Below are positions 2,978 to 31,327 of a stretch of 39,952 bases of DNA, piece after piece; within the stretch, counting starts at the first letter, position 1; each line of letters starts with the position of its first letter. This DNA comes from a virus, in the IMG/VR virus record IMGVR_UViG_3300013104_000044, positions 1 through 39,952 of that record. One strand, written 5' to 3'. A program made the translations under genes and the position numbers. The notes beneath the pieces were generated by a model. It did not search any database. It had not been told where the DNA came from and worked only from the letters and a program-made list of their open reading frames with translations.

Positions 2978-3378
2978 CACTGCCCGCCGTCCAGTGCGCG
3001 GATCGTCGGACACGGGTGCTCACGGCGGCACTCTCGGCAATCGCCGGCGTGGGCGCATCCGCCACCGAACAGGGGATTGCAGTCCGGGTAGCCAGTGCAC
3101 TCGTGCGGCTGATGCAGCGCTCGCACGGTGTCCCGTAGCGCTGCCGTCTCAGCCACCGCACGATCACGGTCGTTATTCGCCTTGCCAAGCGCGACTACAC
3201 CGTCAGCTGCAACGCCCACCACCAATTGATACTTCTTGTCCAACTCGCCGGTCCGCAATAAGCCAGCATCAGCCAAGGCGTCGATCAGTTGACGCGGTGT
3301 CGCTCGCTCTGGGTAGCGGCTGACCATCTCGTGTCCGATGATCTGCATGGCTTGGTTTCGTTCGGCATCACTGGTCAT
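2977..3378 (-). CDS. 133-aa protein with C-terminal Cys cluster
   Basis: An N-terminal helical half is followed by a region with at least seven Cys and several His (about residues 95-125: HECTGYPDC, GGGCAH, CRECRREHPC), probably one or two zinc sites. SD GGAGCG precedes the ATG at 3378. Overlaps the next upstream gene by 4 nt. A nucleic-acid-binding role is possible but not shown. Confidence 0.7.
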   Translation of the reverse strand: MTSDAERNQAMQIIGHEMVSRYPERATPRQLIDALADAGLLRTGELDKKYQLVVGVAADGVVALGKANNDRDRAVAETAALRDTVRALHQPHECTGYPDCNPLFGGGCAHAGDCRECRREHPCPTIRALDGGQ

Positions 3379-6138: not shown

Positions 6139-6224
6139 CAGTCCTCCCTTGGTGGTGGTGTGCCTTGGTAGTGGCATCCGGCGCACCCTGCGAACGGGCA
6201 GGAATCTCCACAGTGGTCGCTCAT
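6138..6224 (-). CDS. 28-aa Cys-rich microprotein
   Basis: MSDHCGDSCPFAGCAGCHYQ then a Pro-rich tail. Four Cys and two His in 18 residues suggest a tiny metal-binding peptide. It starts within the ATGA overlap at the end of the methyltransferase gene and ends in a TGATG overlap with the DnaD-like gene. The SD is embedded in the conserved FGEGA codons of the methyltransferase. Confidence 0.6.
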   Translation of the reverse strand: MSDHCGDSCPFAGCAGCHYQGTPPPRED

Positions 6225-7033
6225 GCGCCCTCCCCGAAGTCGAGCGCGGGCTGATCGCCCTTGAGCACGACTTGCCCTTGCGCTTCGCAGATCCGACTCT
6301 CGGCGATCTGCTGGTAGTGCTCGACCATCTCGACACCGATGAACTTGCGCCCCGACTTAACTGCCGCGACACCGGTCGTGCCAGATCCCATGAATGGATC
6401 GAGGATCGTTCCGCCCTCGGGCGTCAATGTGAGTAGGTCCGTGATGACGCCGACGGGCTTCTCTGTGAGGTGCTGACGCTTGCTCGAAGTTGGTGGGGTG
6501 TGCCGCAGTACGGTCGATGGATACACGTCCTGGGGGTTGCTGTGTGGTCCGTTAGTCGCCCACACGACGTACTCGACGTGGTTGCGGAACCGCCCACGGA
6601 CTGGTCGTCCGATTCCCTTATCCCATACGGCTATTGCGCGCCAGACGAGGCCAGCAGCCTGCACTGCGTCGGTAGTAGTCGGGATCTGCCGCCAGTCGGT
6701 GAAGGTCGCGAACGTGCCACCGGGGCGAAGGATGCGCTGACATTCGGTCATCCAGATGGAGCACCACACGAGGTACCCGCGTTGGTCGCGCGTGTCGCCG
6801 GTAAATCCTTCGTATGATGCAGTCGGCTTGCGACTGCTGCCGTCTGCGTTCTGCGACCAGCCGCGATATTTCTGCTCGACGGGTGCTTGACGGTCGCCAC
6901 GGAATGCGCCACCGCTGGAGTACGGCGGGTCGGTGATGACAGCGTCGACGCTGCCACTCGGCAGCGACCGGAGGACTGCTAGCGAATCTCCGTTATACAG
7001 CGTCACGGAGTCGTCTTCGTAATACAGACTCAT
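6221..7033 (-). CDS. DNA methyltransferase 1 (N4-C/N6-A, beta class)
   Basis: 270 residues. Catalytic DPPY motif at 35-38, SAM-binding DPFMGSGTTG at 212-221, and a variable region between; DPPY before FxGxG is the beta-class order. N-terminus MSLYYEDDSVTLYNGD and C-terminus LDFGEGA closely match the second methyltransferase at 8787-9515, so the two are paralogues. No restriction partner is visible, so it is probably an orphan enzyme protecting phage DNA. GAGGTG precedes the ATG. Confidence 0.92.
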   Translation of the reverse strand: MSLYYEDDSVTLYNGDSLAVLRSLPSGSVDAVITDPPYSSGGAFRGDRQAPVEQKYRGWSQNADGSSRKPTASYEGFTGDTRDQRGYLVWCSIWMTECQRILRPGGTFATFTDWRQIPTTTDAVQAAGLVWRAIAVWDKGIGRPVRGRFRNHVEYVVWATNGPHSNPQDVYPSTVLRHTPPTSSKRQHLTEKPVGVITDLLTLTPEGGTILDPFMGSGTTGVAAVKSGRKFIGVEMVEHYQQIAESRICEAQGQVVLKGDQPALDFGEGA

Positions 7034-7975: not shown

Positions 7976-8790
7976 CAGGCAACCTCGATGTCTGAGAAGT
8001 CGGGGATTCGTTCGGTTGGTGGCAGTCCTTCGACGGCCTTTTCGTATTGCGCGACGATGGCGTTTATCTGCTGCTCTGCGTCGACGAGTGCTTCGGCGAT
8101 GGCGGTGAACCATGCCGGGTCGGGCTCGATCCGCTTGGGCCACAACGGCATCCCGGGCGAAAAGGACACGAAATCGATCCACTTGCGGCCGGTGACGAGT
8201 AGGAACGTCTGGCATTGCGGCATGTACTGCGCCGGCACCTGGTCGGCGAGGATCGTCGCGAGGTGTGTTTTCGGTCGCGGCGACTTGATCTCGATGCCGC
8301 CCTCATCGCCCACGAGACCATCGGGTGAGCAACCGAGGACCGCGCCCCACTTGTCTTCGGTGCAAAACCCCAATTCGACTACGGGTGCGTAGTTTTCGGC
8401 GTAGTGCTCGCGGGCATGCGGTTCGTATTCGGTGCCGCGTTGCATGTCGGAGTTGGGTCGGATCTGGAACGGTTCGCCGGTGATGCGTTCGGCGGCGAGG
8501 GACATGATCAGCGCGTGGCTGGTGTCGTTGTTGGCGGTCACAAGTCGCGCCGGTGCAGCACTCGCGCTGACCTTGCGTGCGTCGTGAACGGTCTTCATCG
8601 GTTTGCCGCCACGCAACGCCACGCACGGGTCGCCCGCGTTGGATTCGCAGTCGGCGCAGGGGAACTCGGTGGGGTCGGGTTGCTGCCGGGTGATGAGGTT
8701 GCCCACGGTGCTTGCGGTGACGATGCCGCACCGTGCAGCCAGCCACTCCGGGCTTCCCTGCTCCAATTCTGGGTACTCTCGGAGACTCAT
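7975..8790 (-). CDS. YqaJ-type exonuclease with inserted zinc finger
   Basis: 271 residues. N-terminal GSPEWLAARCGIVTAS, E121/E123, then D157 (CSPDG) and E167-x-K169 (IEIKSP), followed by QVPAQYMPQCQ, give the PD-(D/E)XK order of lambda-exonuclease/YqaJ proteins that resect dsDNA for recombination. Between the first helix and the core lies an unusual insertion (about 41-75) with C45-x2-C48, C56 and H69 around GDPCVALRGGKPMKTVHDAR, like the small actinobacterial C/H zinc fingers. The SD GGGGAGG lies in the end of methyltransferase 2, overlapping by 4 nt. Confidence 0.88.
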   Translation of the reverse strand: MSLREYPELEQGSPEWLAARCGIVTASTVGNLITRQQPDPTEFPCADCESNAGDPCVALRGGKPMKTVHDARKVSASAAPARLVTANNDTSHALIMSLAAERITGEPFQIRPNSDMQRGTEYEPHAREHYAENYAPVVELGFCTEDKWGAVLGCSPDGLVGDEGGIEIKSPRPKTHLATILADQVPAQYMPQCQTFLLVTGRKWIDFVSFSPGMPLWPKRIEPDPAWFTAIAEALVDAEQQINAIVAQYEKAVEGLPPTERIPDFSDIEVA

Positions 8791-9515
8791 GCGCCCTCCC
8801 CGAAGTTCAGGACGCCCTGCGAAAGTCGTTTCACGATCAGTTCGCAGAATCCCTCGTCCGCCTCGCACAAGATCGCTTTGCAGCCTGCGTCAACTGCGGC
8901 ACGCCCAGTCGTTCCAGAGCCGGCGTAACCGTCGAAGACGACGTCTCCCGGCTTGGTGAACCATTCAAGCCACTGCCGCACCATCCCGAGCGGTTTGGAT
9001 GTGGGGTGTCCTTGCCCCTGTGAACTTGGGAGCACGAAATTTCCCGCCCGTCCGCCACCTGACCATGACGGTCGGATGTCTCGACGGTGCATGTAGGCAA
9101 TTGCCTCCCACCCCTGCGCTGGTCGGTCTCCGCTGATTTGTGGGTTCGGGTTGGTCTTCACCCATACGCCGATGCGTAGCAAGCGCAGCGCCTCGAGTTC
9201 GGTTGCGGCGAAGGTGAATGCGTGCCGATAGTCCATGTTCGCGATAACCCACCCGGAGGTGATTCGCCCTAGTTCTTCAAGGTTGGTGCGCAAGTCTTCT
9301 TCGGTGATGCTGGAGAACGTCTTGATACCGGACAGGACGCGGTTGCCGCGGCGGCCGTATGCGGTGTTGTTGGTGCGGGTGAACTCGTGCGTTTCGGCCG
9401 CGTAGGGCGGGTCTGTTATGACGACGTCGACAGATTTATCACCCATGGTGGCGAGGACTTCGCGACAGTCGCCGTGATGGAGCGTCACGGATTCGTCCTG
9501 GTAGTAGATGCTCAT
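8787..9515 (-). CDS. DNA methyltransferase 2 (beta class)
   Basis: 242 residues. DPPY at 35-38; YAGSGTTG at 197-204 for SAM binding. Paralogue of the 6221-7033 enzyme: shared MS(L/I)YY start and FGEGA end. The middle (target recognition) region differs greatly, so the two probably recognise different sequences. No restriction enzyme is adjacent. GAGGGG lies upstream of the ATG at a somewhat long spacing. Confidence 0.92.
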   Translation of the reverse strand: MSIYYQDESVTLHHGDCREVLATMGDKSVDVVITDPPYAAETHEFTRTNNTAYGRRGNRVLSGIKTFSSITEEDLRTNLEELGRITSGWVIANMDYRHAFTFAATELEALRLLRIGVWVKTNPNPQISGDRPAQGWEAIAYMHRRDIRPSWSGGGRAGNFVLPSSQGQGHPTSKPLGMVRQWLEWFTKPGDVVFDGYAGSGTTGRAAVDAGCKAILCEADEGFCELIVKRLSQGVLNFGEGA

Positions 9516-12657: not shown

Positions 12658-12972
12658 TTATGCGCGGCGCCAAACGGCGTTGCGAGATCCGTGTCTGCTG
12701 CGTCGCGCCGCGTTGACCTCGCCGACCCGGACGATCGCGCCCTGTGCGGCGAGGGTCCCGAAGACTGACGGCAGGACATTCGGGTGATGGGGTGCGGAGT
12801 CCCGGTGGAGCTGATCCATCGCCCGGCGCACGTCATCCGCGGAGAACTCGTAACCACGAGGCATCCCGTCGATGAAGCCGCGCACCAGTTCGCCGTAACC
12901 GCGATGCGCTGCCGTGTCCGCGGCGAGGTTCGCCGCCTGGCCCTCGTGGCGCAGGTCGAGTGGGGTAGTCAT
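12658..12972 (-). CDS. 104-aa winged-helix-like protein
   Basis: The FSADDVRRAMDQLHR and NVLPSVFGTLAAQGAIVRVGE segments follow the pattern of a small winged helix: recognition helix then a wing. It overlaps the Xis-like gene by 4 nt. Possible early regulator; not firmly assigned. Confidence 0.65.
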   Translation of the reverse strand: MTTPLDLRHEGQAANLAADTAAHRGYGELVRGFIDGMPRGYEFSADDVRRAMDQLHRDSAPHHPNVLPSVFGTLAAQGAIVRVGEVNAARRSRHGSRNAVWRRA

Positions 12973-13196
12973 GACGCGGTCCTGCTGATCTGTCCCCAGC
13001 CCTCGGTGTCGGCGTCCGCCTGCGCGGCAGGGATGGCGCGAACGCTCATCGCGGCGACGAGTTCGGGGGTGATGAAGTAGGACCCGCCGATCTTGATGGC
13101 GAGGATGTCGCCTGACGCCGCGTGCTCGCGTGCCCAGCGTGGCGATCGGCCGACACTCTCAGCCCACTGCTCGACGGGCATCAAGTGGATGTTCAT
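12969..13196 (-). CDS. Excisionase-like HTH protein
   Basis: 75 residues: MPVEQWAESVGRSPRWAREHAASGDILAIKIGGSYFI is a MerR/Xis-type winged HTH in which a helix pair is followed by a hairpin that reads DNA. Second gene of the lytic transcript after the Cro-like gene, a common place for xis. It could equally be a general early regulator. Confidence 0.7.
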   Translation of the reverse strand: MNIHLMPVEQWAESVGRSPRWAREHAASGDILAIKIGGSYFITPELVAAMSVRAIPAAQADADTEGWGQISRTAS

Positions 13197-14340: not shown

Positions 14341-15516
14341 TCAAGCGCCGATCTCCTTGGGTGGCGTCCAGTCGATGACGTCGCCCAGGGAGGCAAGGTC
14401 GGCGGGCTGCAGGTGCGTATAGGTCCGTATCGTCGTCTCGATCGACTCGTGACCGAGCTGCTTCTGCAGCCACGCCATCGACTTACCCTCGCGTATTTTG
14501 ATGGAGGCGTAGGTGTGGCGCAGGTCGTGGACGCGTGGTCGCTTGCCAGGTCCGGGGGACCACAGAATCTTGCGCCGGCCGCCAGTTGGTGGCCCGTAGG
14601 TCTTCGTGTCGCCGGCGAACTGGTGGATTGTTTTCAGCCAGGGGCCGTCGTAGAACGGGCCGTAACGCACGACGCCTCCTTTCGGGGTGGTGAACAGCCA
14701 CGCGTCTTGCGGGCGGCCTTCCACGAGCGGCCTGAGCAGGTGTGCGAGCGAGCCCAGGTGGATGGTGCGGTATCCCGCGGCAGACTTCGGCGGACCGTAG
14801 GAGTAGCCGTTACCGTCCGTGTGCTTCCACGCGTGGTGGATGTGCACGAGCTGGGCATCGAGATCGACGTGTCGAACCTTGAGCGCGGTCGCTTCGGAGA
14901 TCCGCATCCCGGTGCCGACAAGGGTGGCGATCAGCGGTCGCCAGTGCTCCGGTGCCGACTCGATGAATCGGCCGACCTCGTCCAGCTCGAGCGTGACCAT
15001 TTCGCGCTTCTCGTCGTCCTTGGGGAGTTCGACGCCCTCGGCGACGTTGCGGGTCAGTAGGTCGGAGCGCACCGCGGCCTTGAGTGCGGCAGAGAGCAGC
15101 GAGTGACGGTGCTTGATCGACTTGTGCGACAGGCCGCGTTCGTCGCGCAGCAGCATGGCGAACCGGGTCACCTGGTCACGGGAGAGCGCGGACAGGGGAG
15201 TGGGCCCGAGGTAGTGCGCGATGTCGCGGGCGTACCCCTCATAGTCGGAGCGGGTGCCGGCGGTGATGTTCGGCAGATGTGCGATGTGGTGGGCGACCTG
15301 TTCGGCGACGGTTCGCTCGGTGGCGGCCTGCGCCTTGGCGAGTATGCGTTCGGCTTCTTGGTGCCCGAGCGAGTCCACGAGGCCGGCGAACTTGCGCGCC
15401 TTTCCTTCGGAGCTGAACGTTTTCACCCGTTGCGGCGATCCTCGGCCGGCGATCCGGTACCGCACGCGCCAACGCTCTGCGCCGTTTTTCGTGTCTCTTC
15501 GTGAGATATCGGGCAT
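14341..15516 (-). CDS. int: Tyrosine integrase
   Basis: 391 residues. N-terminal arm-binding region, SAM-like core-binding domain (about 70-155) and catalytic domain with R205 (TGMRISEA), K244, H330-x2-R333 (HDLRH), H356 (LGHES) and Y366. Complete catalytic set, so it is probably active. The ATG at 15516 follows GAAAGG; the frame stays open upstream through the attP region, but that extension is not protein-like. Integrates at the tRNA-type site immediately upstream. Confidence 0.95.
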   Translation of the reverse strand: MPDISRRDTKNGAERWRVRYRIAGRGSPQRVKTFSSEGKARKFAGLVDSLGHQEAERILAKAQAATERTVAEQVAHHIAHLPNITAGTRSDYEGYARDIAHYLGPTPLSALSRDQVTRFAMLLRDERGLSHKSIKHRHSLLSAALKAAVRSDLLTRNVAEGVELPKDDEKREMVTLELDEVGRFIESAPEHWRPLIATLVGTGMRISEATALKVRHVDLDAQLVHIHHAWKHTDGNGYSYGPPKSAAGYRTIHLGSLAHLLRPLVEGRPQDAWLFTTPKGGVVRYGPFYDGPWLKTIHQFAGDTKTYGPPTGGRRKILWSPGPGKRPRVHDLRHTYASIKIREGKSMAWLQKQLGHESIETTIRTYTHLQPADLASLGDVIDWTPPKEIGA

Positions 15517-16316: not shown

Positions 16317-16586
16317 TCAGTTCTTGACGGCGGTAACGGGCGACGGCTTGGCGGTTGTCTCTGCGCCGGTGAGCGATGGCCCGTCACCGTTGACGCTGGA
16401 CGCGGCGAGTGCTTTGAGCAGCGAGACGACGCCAGCGCCCACTGCGACCGATGCGACGTTCTGCCAGTCGACGTCGAGGGCGCCGACTGCTCCGGCGCCG
16501 AGGACGCCGAGTGCACCGCCGGCGATGCTGCTGACGACGCGTTCGGCGGTGGCTGACCAGAACGCTTTGCTGGTGAGGTTGGACAT
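16317..16586 (-). CDS. r1t-type holin
   Basis: 89 residues. FWSATAERVVSSIAGGALGVLGAGAVGALDVDW is the r1t-family signature, followed by a second hydrophobic segment (about 42-62). Two predicted transmembrane helices and a hydrophilic C-terminus. Start overlaps the endolysin stop (TGATG). Forms the lesion or pinhole that starts lysis. Confidence 0.85.
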   Translation of the reverse strand: MSNLTSKAFWSATAERVVSSIAGGALGVLGAGAVGALDVDWQNVASVAVGAGVVSLLKALAASSVNGDGPSLTGAETTAKPSPVTAVKN

Positions 16587-25593: not shown

Positions 25594-26484
25594 TTACGCG
25601 GGGACAGTGTCAAGCCACGTCACGACCGCGTACGCAGTGTTCGTGGGGTCAACGGCGTCGAACTGGATGAACTGATGGCCAGGGTTCAAGCGGGCGGTCA
25701 GACGGGACGTGCGCGACAACGTGCCGGCCAACGAATAGCCAGCCCTGCCAAACGTATTCGCCGCCGTGTCGATCAGGAACGACTGCCCGTGCTGCACAGT
25801 CGCAGTGGTCGCGATCTCCCACCCGTCACCCGACAGGCGGATCTTCGACGCGACACCCTCGACCGGCCCGAAGACCTGCACCTTGAACGGTGCCGGCCGG
25901 AACCCGCCGACAGTGACCTCGCCAACGCGGGCCTGCGACGTTGGACGGAACTCGATCGGCCACGCCAAGTCGGGCGACCACACGACACCGCCGTCCGGGT
26001 CGGCCTGAATCAGATCCAGCCGGAGCGTGCGCGTTGATGCGTCGGCCGGTTCGATGTACCGCTCCGGTGCGGCAAGCTTGAACGTCGCCGTAATCTGCTG
26101 CCACTGGTCGTCTTTGCGCTCCAACGGGACGACGTCGAACTTCCGCCCACGGCCCAGGTAACGGTACGTGCGGCCGTTCTGTCGGTACCGCAGCACCGAC
26201 AACACGCCAGGTTGCGCCCTGGTCGAATCCGCCCGCCAAACCTGCTGAAACTCGCTGATCCGGGACCACACATCCAACCCGTCGCGGGCATGAATGACGA
26301 ACTGCAACTCCGGACCGTTCAAGTAATCTCGGCCGAACAGCGACCCGTCACCCTGCGGACGAGTCGCGTCCTGCACGGCCATCTCAGGGCTACCGAAGTC
26401 CAAGCCAGGCGCCAGACGGAACCGTGTTTCCTCGCCGAACAGGAATCCGTCCAACTCCCACTGCTCTTCAAAGAGTTCGGACAT
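25594..26484 (-). CDS. Distal tail (Dit-like) protein
   Basis: 296 residues from the ATG at 26484, in a TGATG overlap with the tape measure stop. The region after the tape measure, the W-x-L-D-GFLFGEETRF start and the long beta-sandwich C-terminus fit siphovirus distal tail proteins that cap the tube and hold the tip. A much longer open frame upstream is antisense-type shadow. Confidence 0.75.
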   Translation of the reverse strand: MSELFEEQWELDGFLFGEETRFRLAPGLDFGSPEMAVQDATRPQGDGSLFGRDYLNGPELQFVIHARDGLDVWSRISEFQQVWRADSTRAQPGVLSVLRYRQNGRTYRYLGRGRKFDVVPLERKDDQWQQITATFKLAAPERYIEPADASTRTLRLDLIQADPDGGVVWSPDLAWPIEFRPTSQARVGEVTVGGFRPAPFKVQVFGPVEGVASKIRLSGDGWEIATTATVQHGQSFLIDTAANTFGRAGYSLAGTLSRTSRLTARLNPGHQFIQFDAVDPTNTAYAVVTWLDTVPA

Positions 26485-29400
26485 CACGCGTTCGCCCACT
26501 TGCCAATGCCGTTGCGGTTCATGCTGTAGAGCAGCTCCTTCGCGACATTGTTGGCGTTGTCCATCGGGACACCGTTGATCTCGATGCGGATCGGTTGTGC
26601 CTGCCCGGACTGCGCCTGCTGCACGATGACGCGCTGCGTCGACTGCACCGGAAGCGCGGACAGCCAGTTCGCCATACCGCCCGTGATGCCACCCGTAGCG
26701 CGCTTGACGAGGTTGTAGCCGTAGTAGTCGGCCACGGCCTTCGTGAGGTCGATGTTCCGCGGCTGCCGTGCATCCTTCGACAGTGGGATGTAAGCCTCCG
26801 GGCCTGCCTCTGCCCACAGGGTGGGGCGGTTACGCACCTGCGCTTCACGCAGTCCGCCGGTCGCCATCCGCTGCACGCCGTTCGCGTCGAGGATGCCGCC
26901 CTTAGCCATGCCGCTGCCACTACCTCGCGCCAAACGCTCATCAACGTGCCGTTGAATGGTCGTCGTCACCATGTAGGTCTGGACTGTGACCGTCTTGTCT
27001 TGGGCGGCCCGCAACAGCGCGGTGATCTTGTTGTAGGCATCCACTGCACCGGGCGCCGACGAGGTGATAGTGACTGACTTCCCATTGGCGGAAACCTGAG
27101 CGCCCTTGATGTTGTTGATTTTCCGCTTCGTGTCCTCCGCTAGCGGTGCGCTCGTACTGATCGTGACCTTCTTGCCATTGGTGGCGATCTGCGCGCCGTG
27201 GATCTGCTTGATTAGCCCAATGACTGCCGGCGCGTTCGGGGTGCCGGCCGGGATGATCACCGACTTACCGTCGGCATCAACGGCAGTACGACCCAGCAAG
27301 CCAAGCAGGCGAGTCGTACCCTCCGCATTCAGTGCCGCGGTCGGGATCGACACGCTGCCGTCGGCTGCCAGACGAGCACCCTTGATGCCCAACAGGTTTC
27401 GCAACGTCTCAGGCGAATCGATGGCCGACGTCGGAATCCGAACGGACTTGCCGGTTGTCGACTGCACGGCATCCTTGATGCTGTAGAGCGTCTTCGCGAC
27501 GTTCTCGGCGTTCGTGGTGCTGGCCGAGACTGTGATCTTCTTGCCAGACACCGAGATCACCAGGTTGCCGAGCTTGTCTACCTTGTAGATGGCGCCGTCT
27601 ACGCCGTCGACGTTCACCGATGTGTCTACATTCGCCGGCATCCGGAACAACTGGTCGGCGAGCTGCTTCGCCTTGTCGCGGTTCATGCCGAATGCGACAG
27701 CCTGCGCGATGTACTTCGACTTACCCGTGTCCAGGATTGCGTTCGACTGCTTCATCGACTTCGTCAGGTTGAATTGGGTCGATGCCCAATCGGTTGTCGC
27801 CGACGCGATCGCGTCGAGCTTCTCCTGGTTGTTGCGGCCCTTCTCGGTCGTGATGTCGAGGGTGCGCCCGTTTTCCTTCAGCGACTTCGTCGCGTCGTCG
27901 ATGGCGGCCTGATACCCGCGAGCAGAACCCCGCGCACCTAGCTGTGCGTCGCCGAGTCCCTTGATCGCTTTCGTGAGCGCGTCTACATCTTCGGCTGACG
28001 TGCCGGCCTTCTTGCCCATGCCCTCGATCGCATCGGCGGCAGCCTTCGTCGGCGACGGAACCGCCTTCGCCTTCTTCGGCAAGTCGTCGATCGCGGCAGC
28101 GTATCCAGAGAGCGCCTTCTTGGCTTGCTCTACCTGGGCGGGGTCCATACCCTTGGTCAACTGCGCGAACGCCCTCTTCGCGCCTGCCGAGTCGCCGTTC
28201 TTGATCATCTGGACAAGGGTCTTGTCCAGCTCTCCGAGTCGCTTGTTTGAACTGTCGGCGCTGCCACCCCACAGGCCGATCTGGTGGGCGAAGTTCTTGA
28301 AGCTGCCCTGATTCGCGGCGGCGAGATCCTGGGAGAAACGCTTCACCACGTCGGAGGTTGACACCACCTGCTCGCGGCCGGCGCCGATCTGATGGCCCCA
28401 CAGGACGACATTCGAGCCAGACTCACGGAACAGGTCGGCGAGACCGCCGGCCGCCTGACCGGACGACAACGACTTCATAGAAGCCGCGAGCTTCTTCGTC
28501 TCGACGTCGGCGACCTTCTGCTCGTCGATGTACTTCGTCACCTTCACCGACGCATAGCCGGCGGCGAGCACTACTGCAGCGCTACCCAAGAGCTTCGCCG
28601 ACCCAACGGCCGCCATCTGTGCGGCGGCAAGCTTGCTTCCGCCGGCAGCCGCGGTCAGGTAGGCAGCCTGGAGGGCGCCAAGGCCGGGGACGAGCCGCCC
28701 GATTATGGCAACGCCAGAGCCGAACGCACCCATCGCGATTGTTTGTCCGCCGGCCAGCGTCACCAGCGCGGCGCCCTGCGCGGTGAACGTCCGCGCCGAA
28801 GCTGCCATCGCACCGCTCTGCACCAACTGCGCCTCAGCGGTGCCGATAACTGCGCCACGGGCGGCGATCTGCGCAGTCGTGTATGCCGCCACAGCGCCAC
28901 GGGCAGCCAAGAACTGAGTGCGGATCTTCTGAACAGCGCCGACGACCTTGATGATCCCGGCGGCAGCCAACAGCCCGCCGGCGCCGAGCGTCAGTAGGCC
29001 CGTACCGACCACGAGGATCGGCTGAGGCAGGTGCGCGATCTTCCCGGCAAGGTCCGTTGCGCCCTGCGCCAATGGGCGCAGGAACTTCGTTGCCGCCGCG
29101 CCACCGTTGATCGCGAGTTCGATCGCGGCCGACTTCAGCTTGTTCAGGTCGCCCTTGAGCGAGTCGAGCTTCTTCGCGGCGTTCTCGGCAGCGAATCCGG
29201 CGTCGTTCGTCTGCTTCTGCCAGTCGGCTACGCCCTTCGCGCCGTCCTTGTAGAGGATGTTCGCGGCCTGGATGGACCGGGCGCCGAACAGGATCGACAG
29301 CGCGGCGTTACGCGACTTGTCGTCAAGTCCGCCCAATTTCTCTGCCAATTCGCCGGCGGTAGCCTGCAGACCGATGAACTTGCCGTTCGCGTCAAAGAAC

Positions 29401-30191
29401 GACAGGTTCAGATCCTTCATCACACCGAGCTGCTTGTCGGTGGGGTCCAGAAGGTTCTGGAACATCGTTTTCAGCGCGTTACCGGCCTTCGCGCCCTTGA
29501 GGCCCGACTGATCAAACTCGGCCAGCACTGCGGTCGTGTCCTCGATCGACACACCCATCAGGTGAGCAAGCGAGCCACCCTCCATGAGGCCCTCAGACAG
29601 TGACGACACCGACGCCGTCGACTTGTCCGCACCGGCCGCCAGCAGGTCAGCAATGTGCGGGATGTCCTTCGCCGACAGCTTGAACATCGTCATCGCCGTC
29701 GCCGCAGTCTCAGCAGCATCGCCGGCCGACACGTTGCCAGCAGCAGCCAACGTGAGCGCACCAGTCAGGCCGCCACCGATGATCTGCGTCGCCGACAATC
29801 CAGCCTTCGCCAGGTCGTCAGCCGCGTCCGCCGACTGCATCGCCGAGAACCCGAACTGTGTTCCCTGCGACTTGACGGCCGCGGTCAGCTTCTCGAACTC
29901 GGCCGGCGTCGAGTGGACGTTCGCCTTGACGACCGCCATCTTCGCGTCGAAATCAGCAGACGCCTTGACCGCAGCACCCAAACCCAGCGCGAGCACGCCG
30001 CCGGCGACCGTGAAACCCTTCGCGAGCTTCGTGACGTTCCCGCCAGCCTGCGTGAATGAACGCGACGCGGCAGCAGATCCCGTCTGCGCCTGACGTGCCA
30101 TCGTCGTCGTGGCGGCACCAGCCGACCGCATACCCGCGACATACTGGCCCACGTTCGCGATCAAACTGATAACAACCGAACGAGCAGCCAC
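26484..30191 (-). CDS. Tape measure protein
   Basis: 1235 residues from the GTG at 30191 (GGAGG 7 nt upstream); another GTG at 30197 is too close to the SD. N-terminal phage-tail tape-measure domain (LSEGLMEGGSLAHLMGVSIEDTTAVLAEFDQSG, TMFQNLLDP). Hydrophobic segments near 390-425 and 480-560. Residues ~875-1065 hold about five imperfect 35-40-residue repeats (GK-V-I-tSA-A-T...I-GA). It sets tail length and is ejected with DNA. Confidence 0.93.
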   Translation of the reverse strand: MAARSVVISLIANVGQYVAGMRSAGAATTTMARQAQTGSAAASRSFTQAGGNVTKLAKGFTVAGGVLALGLGAAVKASADFDAKMAVVKANVHSTPAEFEKLTAAVKSQGTQFGFSAMQSADAADDLAKAGLSATQIIGGGLTGALTLAAAGNVSAGDAAETAATAMTMFKLSAKDIPHIADLLAAGADKSTASVSSLSEGLMEGGSLAHLMGVSIEDTTAVLAEFDQSGLKGAKAGNALKTMFQNLLDPTDKQLGVMKDLNLSFFDANGKFIGLQATAGELAEKLGGLDDKSRNAALSILFGARSIQAANILYKDGAKGVADWQKQTNDAGFAAENAAKKLDSLKGDLNKLKSAAIELAINGGAAATKFLRPLAQGATDLAGKIAHLPQPILVVGTGLLTLGAGGLLAAAGIIKVVGAVQKIRTQFLAARGAVAAYTTAQIAARGAVIGTAEAQLVQSGAMAASARTFTAQGAALVTLAGGQTIAMGAFGSGVAIIGRLVPGLGALQAAYLTAAAGGSKLAAAQMAAVGSAKLLGSAAVVLAAGYASVKVTKYIDEQKVADVETKKLAASMKSLSSGQAAGGLADLFRESGSNVVLWGHQIGAGREQVVSTSDVVKRFSQDLAAANQGSFKNFAHQIGLWGGSADSSNKRLGELDKTLVQMIKNGDSAGAKRAFAQLTKGMDPAQVEQAKKALSGYAAAIDDLPKKAKAVPSPTKAAADAIEGMGKKAGTSAEDVDALTKAIKGLGDAQLGARGSARGYQAAIDDATKSLKENGRTLDITTEKGRNNQEKLDAIASATTDWASTQFNLTKSMKQSNAILDTGKSKYIAQAVAFGMNRDKAKQLADQLFRMPANVDTSVNVDGVDGAIYKVDKLGNLVISVSGKKITVSASTTNAENVAKTLYSIKDAVQSTTGKSVRIPTSAIDSPETLRNLLGIKGARLAADGSVSIPTAALNAEGTTRLLGLLGRTAVDADGKSVIIPAGTPNAPAVIGLIKQIHGAQIATNGKKVTISTSAPLAEDTKRKINNIKGAQVSANGKSVTITSSAPGAVDAYNKITALLRAAQDKTVTVQTYMVTTTIQRHVDERLARGSGSGMAKGGILDANGVQRMATGGLREAQVRNRPTLWAEAGPEAYIPLSKDARQPRNIDLTKAVADYYGYNLVKRATGGITGGMANWLSALPVQSTQRVIVQQAQSGQAQPIRIEINGVPMDNANNVAKELLYSMNRNGIGKWANA

Positions 30192-30207
30192 AGGCACGCC
30201 TCCGCTC

Positions 30208-30240
30208 TATGATGTGAAATTCAGGGAAGGGAGGCACGCC
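30208..30240 (+). promoter_or_regulatory. Candidate promoter and RBS of plus-strand gene
   Basis: TATGAT (30208-30213) is a strong -10; the -35 region at 30185-30190 (CAGCCA) is weak. A purine-rich AAGGGAGG (30227-30234) lies 6 nt before the GTG. It overlaps the upstream leader of the tape measure gene on the other strand. Confidence 0.45.
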
Positions 30241-30432
30241 GTGCCTAAAAGTCGCCGCGAGGCAGGGTTCCTCGCATTAGCGGGGCTCGCTCTCGCCATA
30301 TTTGGGGCTGCAGCCGATATCGAGTACAAGGGCGCTGCCGTCATCATCGGAGCCGTCGCGTTCCTCATCGGCGCCGTGCTGTGGCTCATCCACTACTCAG
30401 CCGACCTGCGCAAACAACCCAGCGACGACTAG
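30241..30432 (+). CDS. Two-helix membrane protein, probable moron
   Basis: 63 residues with two hydrophobic helices (about 8-25, 31-51), a basic N-terminus (MPKSRREA) and a charged tail. It is the only plus-strand gene in the late operon and sits between tape measure and tail chaperone, with its own SD and -10. Such isolated reverse genes are often lysogeny-expressed morons; small membrane proteins among them may exclude other phages. The function is inference. Stop overlaps the convergent chaperone stop by 4 nt. Confidence 0.7.
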   Translation: MPKSRREAGFLALAGLALAIFGAAADIEYKGAAVIIGAVAFLIGAVLWLIHYSADLRKQPSDD

Positions 30433-30851
30433 CCGAACTCCGGTTTCAGTTCGTCCTCACCGAAGTCCTTATCGAGAACGTTGATCGCGACAACCTTCGC
30501 GCCCGGCGTGGGCTTCTCGTGGTCTGCTTGGTGCTTCTCCACGGCTGCGCACGCCTTACACACAAACTCTTCGGCTTTCCAATCGCCGGGCTCGTCGATG
30601 TAGTGCCCGCACCCCATGATCGAGCGTTCGTGCAACGTGAGCGCGATCGACAACAACCGGTCAGACGGCAACCAAGGCTTCGACGGCGAACGACCCTCCC
30701 GGATAACCGAGATCGGCACATGCCAGTCGCGTGCAGTGCGAAGAGTGTTCAGGACTCCGTCGTTGACAGCAGAGCGGAGAGCCCGGGAGAGAAATCCGGC
30801 ATCACCTGACCACCGGAAGCGAACCCGGCCAGCTCCGACAGTGCGTTGCAA
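30429..30851 (-). CDS. Tail assembly chaperone, frameshift extension
   Basis: Frame open from about 30,860; it is reached from the upstream frame by a -1 shift. The C-terminal part ARDWHVPISVIREG...SDRLLSIALTLHERSIMGCGHYIDE...VCKACAAVE carries the C-x-C-G and C-x2-C zinc pattern typical of the long form of actinophage tail chaperones. No separate SD or start is convincing. Coordinates give the open frame; the fused protein would span 31327-30429. Confidence 0.75.
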   Translation of the reverse strand: MQRTVGAGRVRFRWSGDAGFLSRALRSAVNDGVLNTLRTARDWHVPISVIREGRSPSKPWLPSDRLLSIALTLHERSIMGCGHYIDEPGDWKAEEFVCKACAAVEKHQADHEKPTPGAKVVAINVLDKDFGEDELKPEFG

Positions 30852-31327
30852 ATGTCCGCGAACTGCACCTCACCGATGCCCTGACGCATCCGTGCCCAAC
30901 CATCGGCGGGAAGCTTCGGGTATGTGACAGCGACAGCGAGACGGGCATACGCGGCCTTGTCGCCCTTCACCTTGGACTCGACGATCTTCTTGTCCTCGTC
31001 GCCAGTCAGTGCGCGCACCTTCACCGGCAGTGCGGAATCCTCAAGGCGGGCCATCAGCTTCTGCAACTGCTTCGCCACGTCATACAGTTCCTGCACCTGC
31101 GGCGACACGCCGAGCGAGTCATCCTTGTCGTCGTCGTCGAGGTTGACCTGCGACTGCATCAGGAGGAACTTCTGCTCGAGCGCGTCGTATTCGGCGCGTA
31201 GTCCGGCGTCCCGGTAAATCTTCACGGTCCGCGCCGGCAGTGACGCACCGGACAGCCATTCCTCGATGTCGAACTCTTCCGGGTCCGCGTCGATGCCGAA
31301 GCTGTCCTTCTTCTTCGCTGTAGCCAT
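30749..31327 (-). CDS. Tail assembly chaperone, short form
   Basis: 192 residues, mostly helical, acidic in the centre (QVNLDDDDKDDSLG). It lies between the major tail protein and the tape measure, the usual chaperone place, and overlaps the second frame by about 100 nt. ATG at 31327 with AAGGGA upstream. Keeps the tape measure protein soluble during tail assembly. Confidence 0.85.
   Translation of the reverse strand: MATAKKKDSFGIDADPEEFDIEEWLSGASLPARTVKIYRDAGLRAEYDALEQKFLLMQSQVNLDDDDKDDSLGVSPQVQELYDVAKQLQKLMARLEDSALPVKVRALTGDEDKKIVESKVKGDKAAYARLAVAVTYPKLPADGWARMRQGIGEVQFADICNALSELAGFASGGQVMPDFSPGLSALLSTTES

What the first reader, a model, noticed from the sequence alone, without database searches (positions are those of the whole stretch)
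30208..30432. Isolated reverse-strand membrane gene in the late operon
Only plus-strand gene between 16.2 and 40 kb, with its own -10 (TATGAT) and SD, 63 aa, two helices. Genes placed this way are often morons expressed in the lysogen; a small membrane protein is a good superinfection-exclusion candidate. Its transcript is antisense to the tail chaperone region if it reads on.
Basis: inference. Interest (0 to 1): 0.65.

Follow-up and report, generated by a model that had tools for sequence, protein, structure and literature searches.

The report
Reverse-strand membrane gene beside tape-measure gene
A temperate phage carries, wedged backwards between two of its tail genes, a small gene for a membrane protein with its own likely switch; dozens of other phages of actinobacteria keep a similar envelope-protein gene in the same place, which suggests a lock that keeps rival phages from injecting their DNA into the infected cell.

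Summary
Window 30241-30432 (+) encodes a 63-aa two-helix membrane protein (AlphaFold pLDDT 91) with SD and candidate -10. [quoted passage not shown] The nearest relative (L002) has a 53-55% identical gene at the same place and strand. Among 130 non-duplicate TMP loci, about 51 have an antisense gene in this slot. Nearly all encode envelope proteins (TM hairpins, single-TM, lipoproteins): 32 of 33 coding-like slot ORFs have a TM segment, against 5 of 21 in control stretches. Over half have a -10 hexamer at leaderless distance from the antisense start (24/42; shuffles mean 3, maximum 10). A tyrosine integrase is found in 17/18 records of 35 kb or more with the gene, 7/11 without. HK97 gp15, a proven superinfection-exclusion moron, sits in the same slot, but on the sense strand, and is not homologous. 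The reverse gene was noted in print for Gordonia cluster DN, without a function. Best reading: an independently transcribed moron whose product blocks DNA injection by related siphophages, probably through their TMP. Anatomy shown; function inferred.

The parts
30208..30213 (+). candidate -10 hexamer TATGAT of the + strand gene (leadered, SD-type member)
   Evidence: sequence; slot relatives Anekin L006 and Hestia L011 also have TATGAT about 34 bases before the start plus a purine-rich SD, L002 has TATGCT at -43; no -35 by pattern scan
30229..30234 (+). Shine-Dalgarno GGGAGG, 6 nt before the GTG
   Evidence: sequence
30241..30432 (+). 63-aa two-TM membrane protein MPKSRREAGFLALAGLALAIFGAAADIEYKGAAVIIGAVAFLIGAVLWLIHYSADLRKQPSDD; basic N- and C-tails suggest both ends in the cytoplasm (inference)
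   Evidence: AF2 helices 5-24 and 30-57, mean pLDDT 91.3
30429..30432 (.). CTAG in which the stop codon (TAG) of the + gene overlaps the stop codon of the converging chaperone reading frame
   Evidence: a similar 4-base overlap in the annotations of Kukla, Footloose and BritBrat
26484..30197 (-). tail tape measure protein, TP901 type; starts 43 bases from the + gene, divergent
   Evidence: PHROG hits, best phrog_1533 E 9e-87
30749..31327 (-). tail assembly chaperone, short (G) form
   Evidence: tblastn to annotated chaperones of Arthrobacter phages Pitbull and Hum25; same place and order as in L002
30429..30851 (-). tail assembly chaperone, frameshifted extension (T) reading frame; candidate -1 slip site GGATTTC near 30791-30797 read by eye, not tested
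   Evidence: ORF overlap; annotated two-piece chaperones in the same place in Arthrobacter phages
14341..15426 (-). tyrosine integrase (the phage is temperate)
   Evidence: phrog_1 E 2.1e-59; PF00589
13193..13447 (-). repressor-type HTH protein
   Evidence: phrog_3 E 1.2e-10
12969..13196 (-). excisionase-like protein
   Evidence: phrog_1840 E 4e-5
16317..16586 (-). dedicated holin next to the endolysin, which speaks against the + gene being the lysis holin
   Evidence: phrog_443 E 2.6e-17

Best explanation
A moron-type gene in the chaperone/TMP slot. It is transcribed from its own promoter, opposite to the late operon, and makes a 63-aa hairpin membrane protein with both ends in the cytoplasm. 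Inferred mechanism: made in the lysogen while the late operon is silent, it sits in the cytoplasmic membrane and blocks entry of DNA from related siphophages, most likely by interfering with the incoming tape measure protein or its membrane partner, as proposed for HK97 gp15 and TP-J34 Ltp. Shown: gene, position, conservation, two-helix hairpin (predicted), temperate context, recurrence of the slot, envelope-protein bias and promoter signal across slot genes. Inferred: lysogenic expression, exclusion, TMP as target.
For: Conserved position, strand and sequence in L002, with more synonymous than nonsynonymous change. About 51 of 130 non-duplicate TMP loci have an antisense slot gene. Of coding-like antisense ORFs in the slot 32/33 have a TM segment, against 1/12, 0/3, 0/0 and 4/6 in equal-length control stretches; the exception, L078, reads as a lipoprotein from its likely start, and L068 and Gordonia BritBrat gp17 also look like lipoproteins. 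TAnnnT at -14..-11 of an in-frame start in 24/42 loci, shuffle mean 2.98, max 10 of 1000 (first pass). Integrase in 17/18 against 7/11 records of 35 kb or more; Bridgette has integrase and immunity repressor. HK97 gp15 lies in the same slot; gp15 blocks DNA injection, and HK97 hybrids with the HK022 tail tube and TMP genes escape it (PMC10883804); Ltp, a lipoprotein, targets the TMP (PMC3952083).
Against: No sequence relation to HK97 gp15 (hhalign probability 0.2%), which has one TM and lies on the sense strand; no PADLOC hit for this protein. No expression data. The window's own promoter is only a -10 candidate without a -35. Small membrane proteins of phages also serve other ends. Prophages in GTDB genomes carry the slot gene less often (7/50) than virome contigs (36/68), although the virome list is biased towards close TMPs. 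Periwinkle's slot genes in Gordonia cluster DN are not clearly membrane proteins.
Confidence: 0.5

Rival explanations
1. A lysogenic-conversion membrane gene with another role (envelope change, host fitness, or another effect on the cell), kept in this slot only because an insertion there is harmless to the operon.
For: Sequence diversity of slot proteins, among them lipoproteins, a DUF732 lipoprotein, a DUF4190 protein and a four-TM-like protein, fits a landing site for varied cargo; an HNH endonuclease sits next to the slot gene in Footloose.
Against: Cargo that merely lands there need not be an envelope protein in nearly every case.
Confidence: 0.3
2. The antisense promoter, not the protein, matters: transcription against the late operon damps chaperone or TMP expression in the lysogen.
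For: Promoter signal next to the TMP start in many loci; no terminator found in the window, so the RNA could run into the chaperones.
Against: Protein-level constraint (pN < pS in 8 of 8 pairs, narrowly in one) and a near-universal TM or lipoprotein product are not expected if only transcription mattered.
Confidence: 0.07
3. A second holin or antiholin that tunes lysis.
For: Two TMs with basic tails is a common holin layout (own knowledge); weak sub-threshold Pfam hits to Phage_holin_3_6 in 4 of 14 members.
Against: The window has its own holin beside the endolysin; the hits are below Pfam's cut-off; a gene opposite to the late operon is oddly placed for a late lysis function; lipoproteins in the same slot do not fit.
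Confidence: 0.1
4. A chance ORF.
For: GC-rich DNA has many spurious antisense ORFs.
Against: Conserved in L002 and recurrent in many loci, with coding-like codon usage, SD and pS > pN; slot genes are annotated as genes in isolated phages.
Confidence: 0.02

Closest known systems
HK97 gp15 superinfection-exclusion moron
   Same: 62-aa membrane protein encoded between the frameshifted chaperone and the TMP of a temperate siphophage
   Different: Sense strand with an annotated terminator; one TM followed by a polar C-terminal part; no detectable homology
Reverse gene between chaperones and TMP in Gordonia cluster DN phages (Periwinkle paper, PMC9476921), and the annotated reverse gene (gp16, 17 or 18) of Arthrobacter phages Bridgette, Constance, Anekin, Hestia, Kukla and gp15 of Microbacterium phage Footloose
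   Same: Same slot, same antisense orientation; the Arthrobacter and Microbacterium proteins are two-TM proteins of similar size
   Different: Annotated only as hypothetical or membrane protein; no function claimed; DN proteins are of other kinds (lipoprotein-like BritBrat gp17; Periwinkle gp17-19 not clearly membrane)
TP-J34 Ltp superinfection-exclusion lipoprotein
   Same: Prophage-expressed envelope protein that blocks DNA injection with the TMP as target (PMC3952083); some slot genes also look like lipoproteins (L068, L078, BritBrat gp17)
   Different: Encoded in the lysogeny module, not in the tail slot; the window protein has no lipobox; homology was not tested directly

Membership tests
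HK97 gp15 | encoded between chaperone and TMP | tested here: met
HK97 gp15 | sequence homology | tested here: not met
   hhalign probability 0.2%; gp15 is in phrog_5031, which the window protein does not hit
HK97 gp15 | sense-strand gene, one N-terminal TM | tested here: not met
   antisense, two helices
HK97 gp15 | superinfection exclusion | not testable with these tools
   needs plating tests
Moron (independent gene in a prophage operon) | own promoter | tested here: inconclusive
   candidate -10 in the window without a -35; a promoter signal is statistically clear across slot genes
Moron (independent gene in a prophage operon) | own terminator | tested here: not met
   no intrinsic terminator-like site found by pattern scan
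Moron (independent gene in a prophage operon) | present or absent as a unit between otherwise adjacent genes | tested here: met
   loci with and without the slot gene; chaperone-G stop to TMP distance median 589 against 437.5 bases, Mann-Whitney p 6e-8, distributions overlap
Moron (independent gene in a prophage operon) | expressed in the lysogen | not testable with these tools
   needs RNA-seq
Phage holin | curated holin family score | tested here: not met
   Phage_holin_3_6 18.5 bits against a 28.4 cut-off; PHROG holin E 0.04

The most novel reading that the evidence does not exclude
The chaperone/TMP slot of temperate actinophages is a dedicated exclusion locus: a fast-changing set of unrelated envelope proteins (hairpins, single-span proteins, lipoproteins), transcribed from compact, often leaderless promoters against the late operon and linked to the TMP because TMP-mediated injection is what they act on.
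Probability: 0.4. Interest if true: 0.75.

Novelty: new variant of a known kind. Interest (0 to 1): 0.55.

Why it matters
If right, one genomic address predicts candidate superinfection-exclusion genes in many temperate phages of actinobacteria, and it would give a ready panel to ask how small envelope proteins stop DNA injection through the tape measure protein. It also shows that an apparently orphan 63-aa ORF belongs to a recurrent arrangement.

Tried and rejected
Direct homology searches with the 63-aa protein found nothing: relatives were only found through the neighbouring TMP. Pfam, PHROG and PADLOC gave no reliable family; PDB sequence hits were weak and look like matches to hydrophobic helices. 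A -10 search that left out the last bases before the start codon missed the leaderless signal, corrected. Serine-integrase search of records without a tyrosine integrase: none found. The first tally of slot ORFs without TM (L078, L112) was a start-codon error. Fold search was not run: a two-helix hairpin is not discriminating. Weak or fragmentary antisense ORFs (L107, L114, L136) were left out of the promoter set.

Full report
The observation. Window 30241-30432 (+) is an open frame of 63 codons with GTG start, an SD (GGGAGG, 30229-30234) and a TATGAT at 30208-30213. The finding's coordinates run from the -10 to the stop. A home-made codon-usage gene finder called no other + strand gene from 16,203 to 39,952. 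The gene lies between the TMP (26484-30197, minus) and the frameshifted chaperone frame (stop 30429), and the two stop codons overlap in CTAG. AlphaFold2 on a 12-row alignment of slot proteins gives two helices, 5-24 and 30-57, mean pLDDT 91.3. A pattern scan found neither a full sigma-70-type promoter nor a terminator.

Context. The phage has a tyrosine integrase, a repressor-type HTH protein and an excisionase-like protein, so it is probably temperate. It has its own holin beside the endolysin.

Relatives. Searches with the small protein itself found nothing. Searching with the TMP led to L002 (first 200 TMP codons 76% identical), which has an antisense ORF at the same place, MPKTRREAGVLALLGVVLMLLSGTTGDGQGFLLVGGVVVFAIGAVLWLIHYSHDLRKDPDDSAERR, 53-55% identical, pS 0.56, pN 0.32. 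In all eight pairs compared pN is below pS, though the margin is small for L052/L036. Isolated Arthrobacter phages (Anekin, Constance, Bridgette, Hestia, Kukla), Microbacterium phage Footloose and Gordonia phage BritBrat have annotated reverse genes in the same slot; Pitbull has an unannotated one.

Survey. TMP-based scans of IMG/VR and GTDB genomes gave 80 and 55 loci. I located TMP starts and scored antisense ORFs by codon usage. Of 130 non-duplicate loci about 51 have a slot gene: virome 36/68, isolated phages 8/12, bacterial genomes 7/50. This count rests partly on manual choice of borderline ORFs and should be read as approximate. The distance from the short chaperone's stop to the TMP is larger with the gene (median 589 against 437.5 bases, p 6e-8), but the distributions overlap.

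Kind of product. In equal-length stretches, coding-like antisense ORFs (score 4 or more) have a TM segment in 32/33 in the slot, against 1/12, 0/3, 0/0 and 4/6 in four control stretches. The one slot exception, L078, begins MKRPLIALSVLLTLALAGC from its likely start and matches DUF732. L068 and BritBrat gp17 also look like lipoproteins by eye; Pfam's lipoprotein-site model hits L068 only below its cut-off. Periwinkle's slot genes are not clearly membrane proteins.

Promoter. TAnnnT lies at -14..-11 from the chosen antisense start in 15/39 loci against a shuffle mean of 0.98, max 5 of 1000; the TMP start of the same loci gives 0. Allowing in-frame alternative starts, 24/42 against mean 2.98, max 10. 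At this distance transcription would begin at the start codon, i.e. a leaderless mRNA, which is common in actinobacteria (own knowledge). The window's gene, L002, Anekin and Hestia instead have the hexamer 33-43 bases upstream with a purine-rich SD.

Life style. PF00589 was found in 17 of 18 records of 35 kb or more with a slot gene and in 7 of 11 without (my count; related phages are not independent). No serine integrase was found in the records checked.

Known systems. HK97 gp15 is encoded between chaperone and TMP, on the sense strand with a terminator. It blocks DNA injection, and hybrids with the HK022 tail tube and TMP genes escape (PMC10883804). Ltp of TP-J34 is a prophage-expressed lipoprotein with the TMP as target (PMC3952083). 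The window protein is not detectably homologous to gp15. The Periwinkle announcement states that all cluster DN phages have at least one reverse gene between chaperones and TMP (PMC9476921), with no function claimed; no other held paper that I found describes the slot.

Judgement. Gene and recurrent slot are solid; envelope product and own promoter are well supported for the class; exclusion through the TMP is inference by analogy of place, product type and life style. Interest 0.55.

Noticed in passing
L005 (Arthrobacter phage Pitbull, PQ184828.1), about 2990-3205 minus: An antisense two-TM ORF of about 71 aa in the chaperone/TMP slot is not annotated in the record.
   Followed up: partly
L078, full frame upstream of the TMP: The slot gene reads as a DUF732 lipoprotein (PF05305 E 7e-8).
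   Followed up: partly
L048, about -483..-315 and -248..-56 from the TMP start: Two antisense TM ORFs in one slot.
   Followed up: no
L012 (Microbacterium phage Footloose), 2854-3450: An HNH endonuclease gene sits between the slot gene and the TMP.
   Followed up: no
window 30791-30797 (minus): GGATTTC, a candidate -1 frameshift site for the tail chaperone, read by eye.
   Followed up: no
window 6221-7033 and 8787-9515 (minus): Two ORFs with N6/N4 DNA methylase domain matches (PF01555).
   Followed up: no
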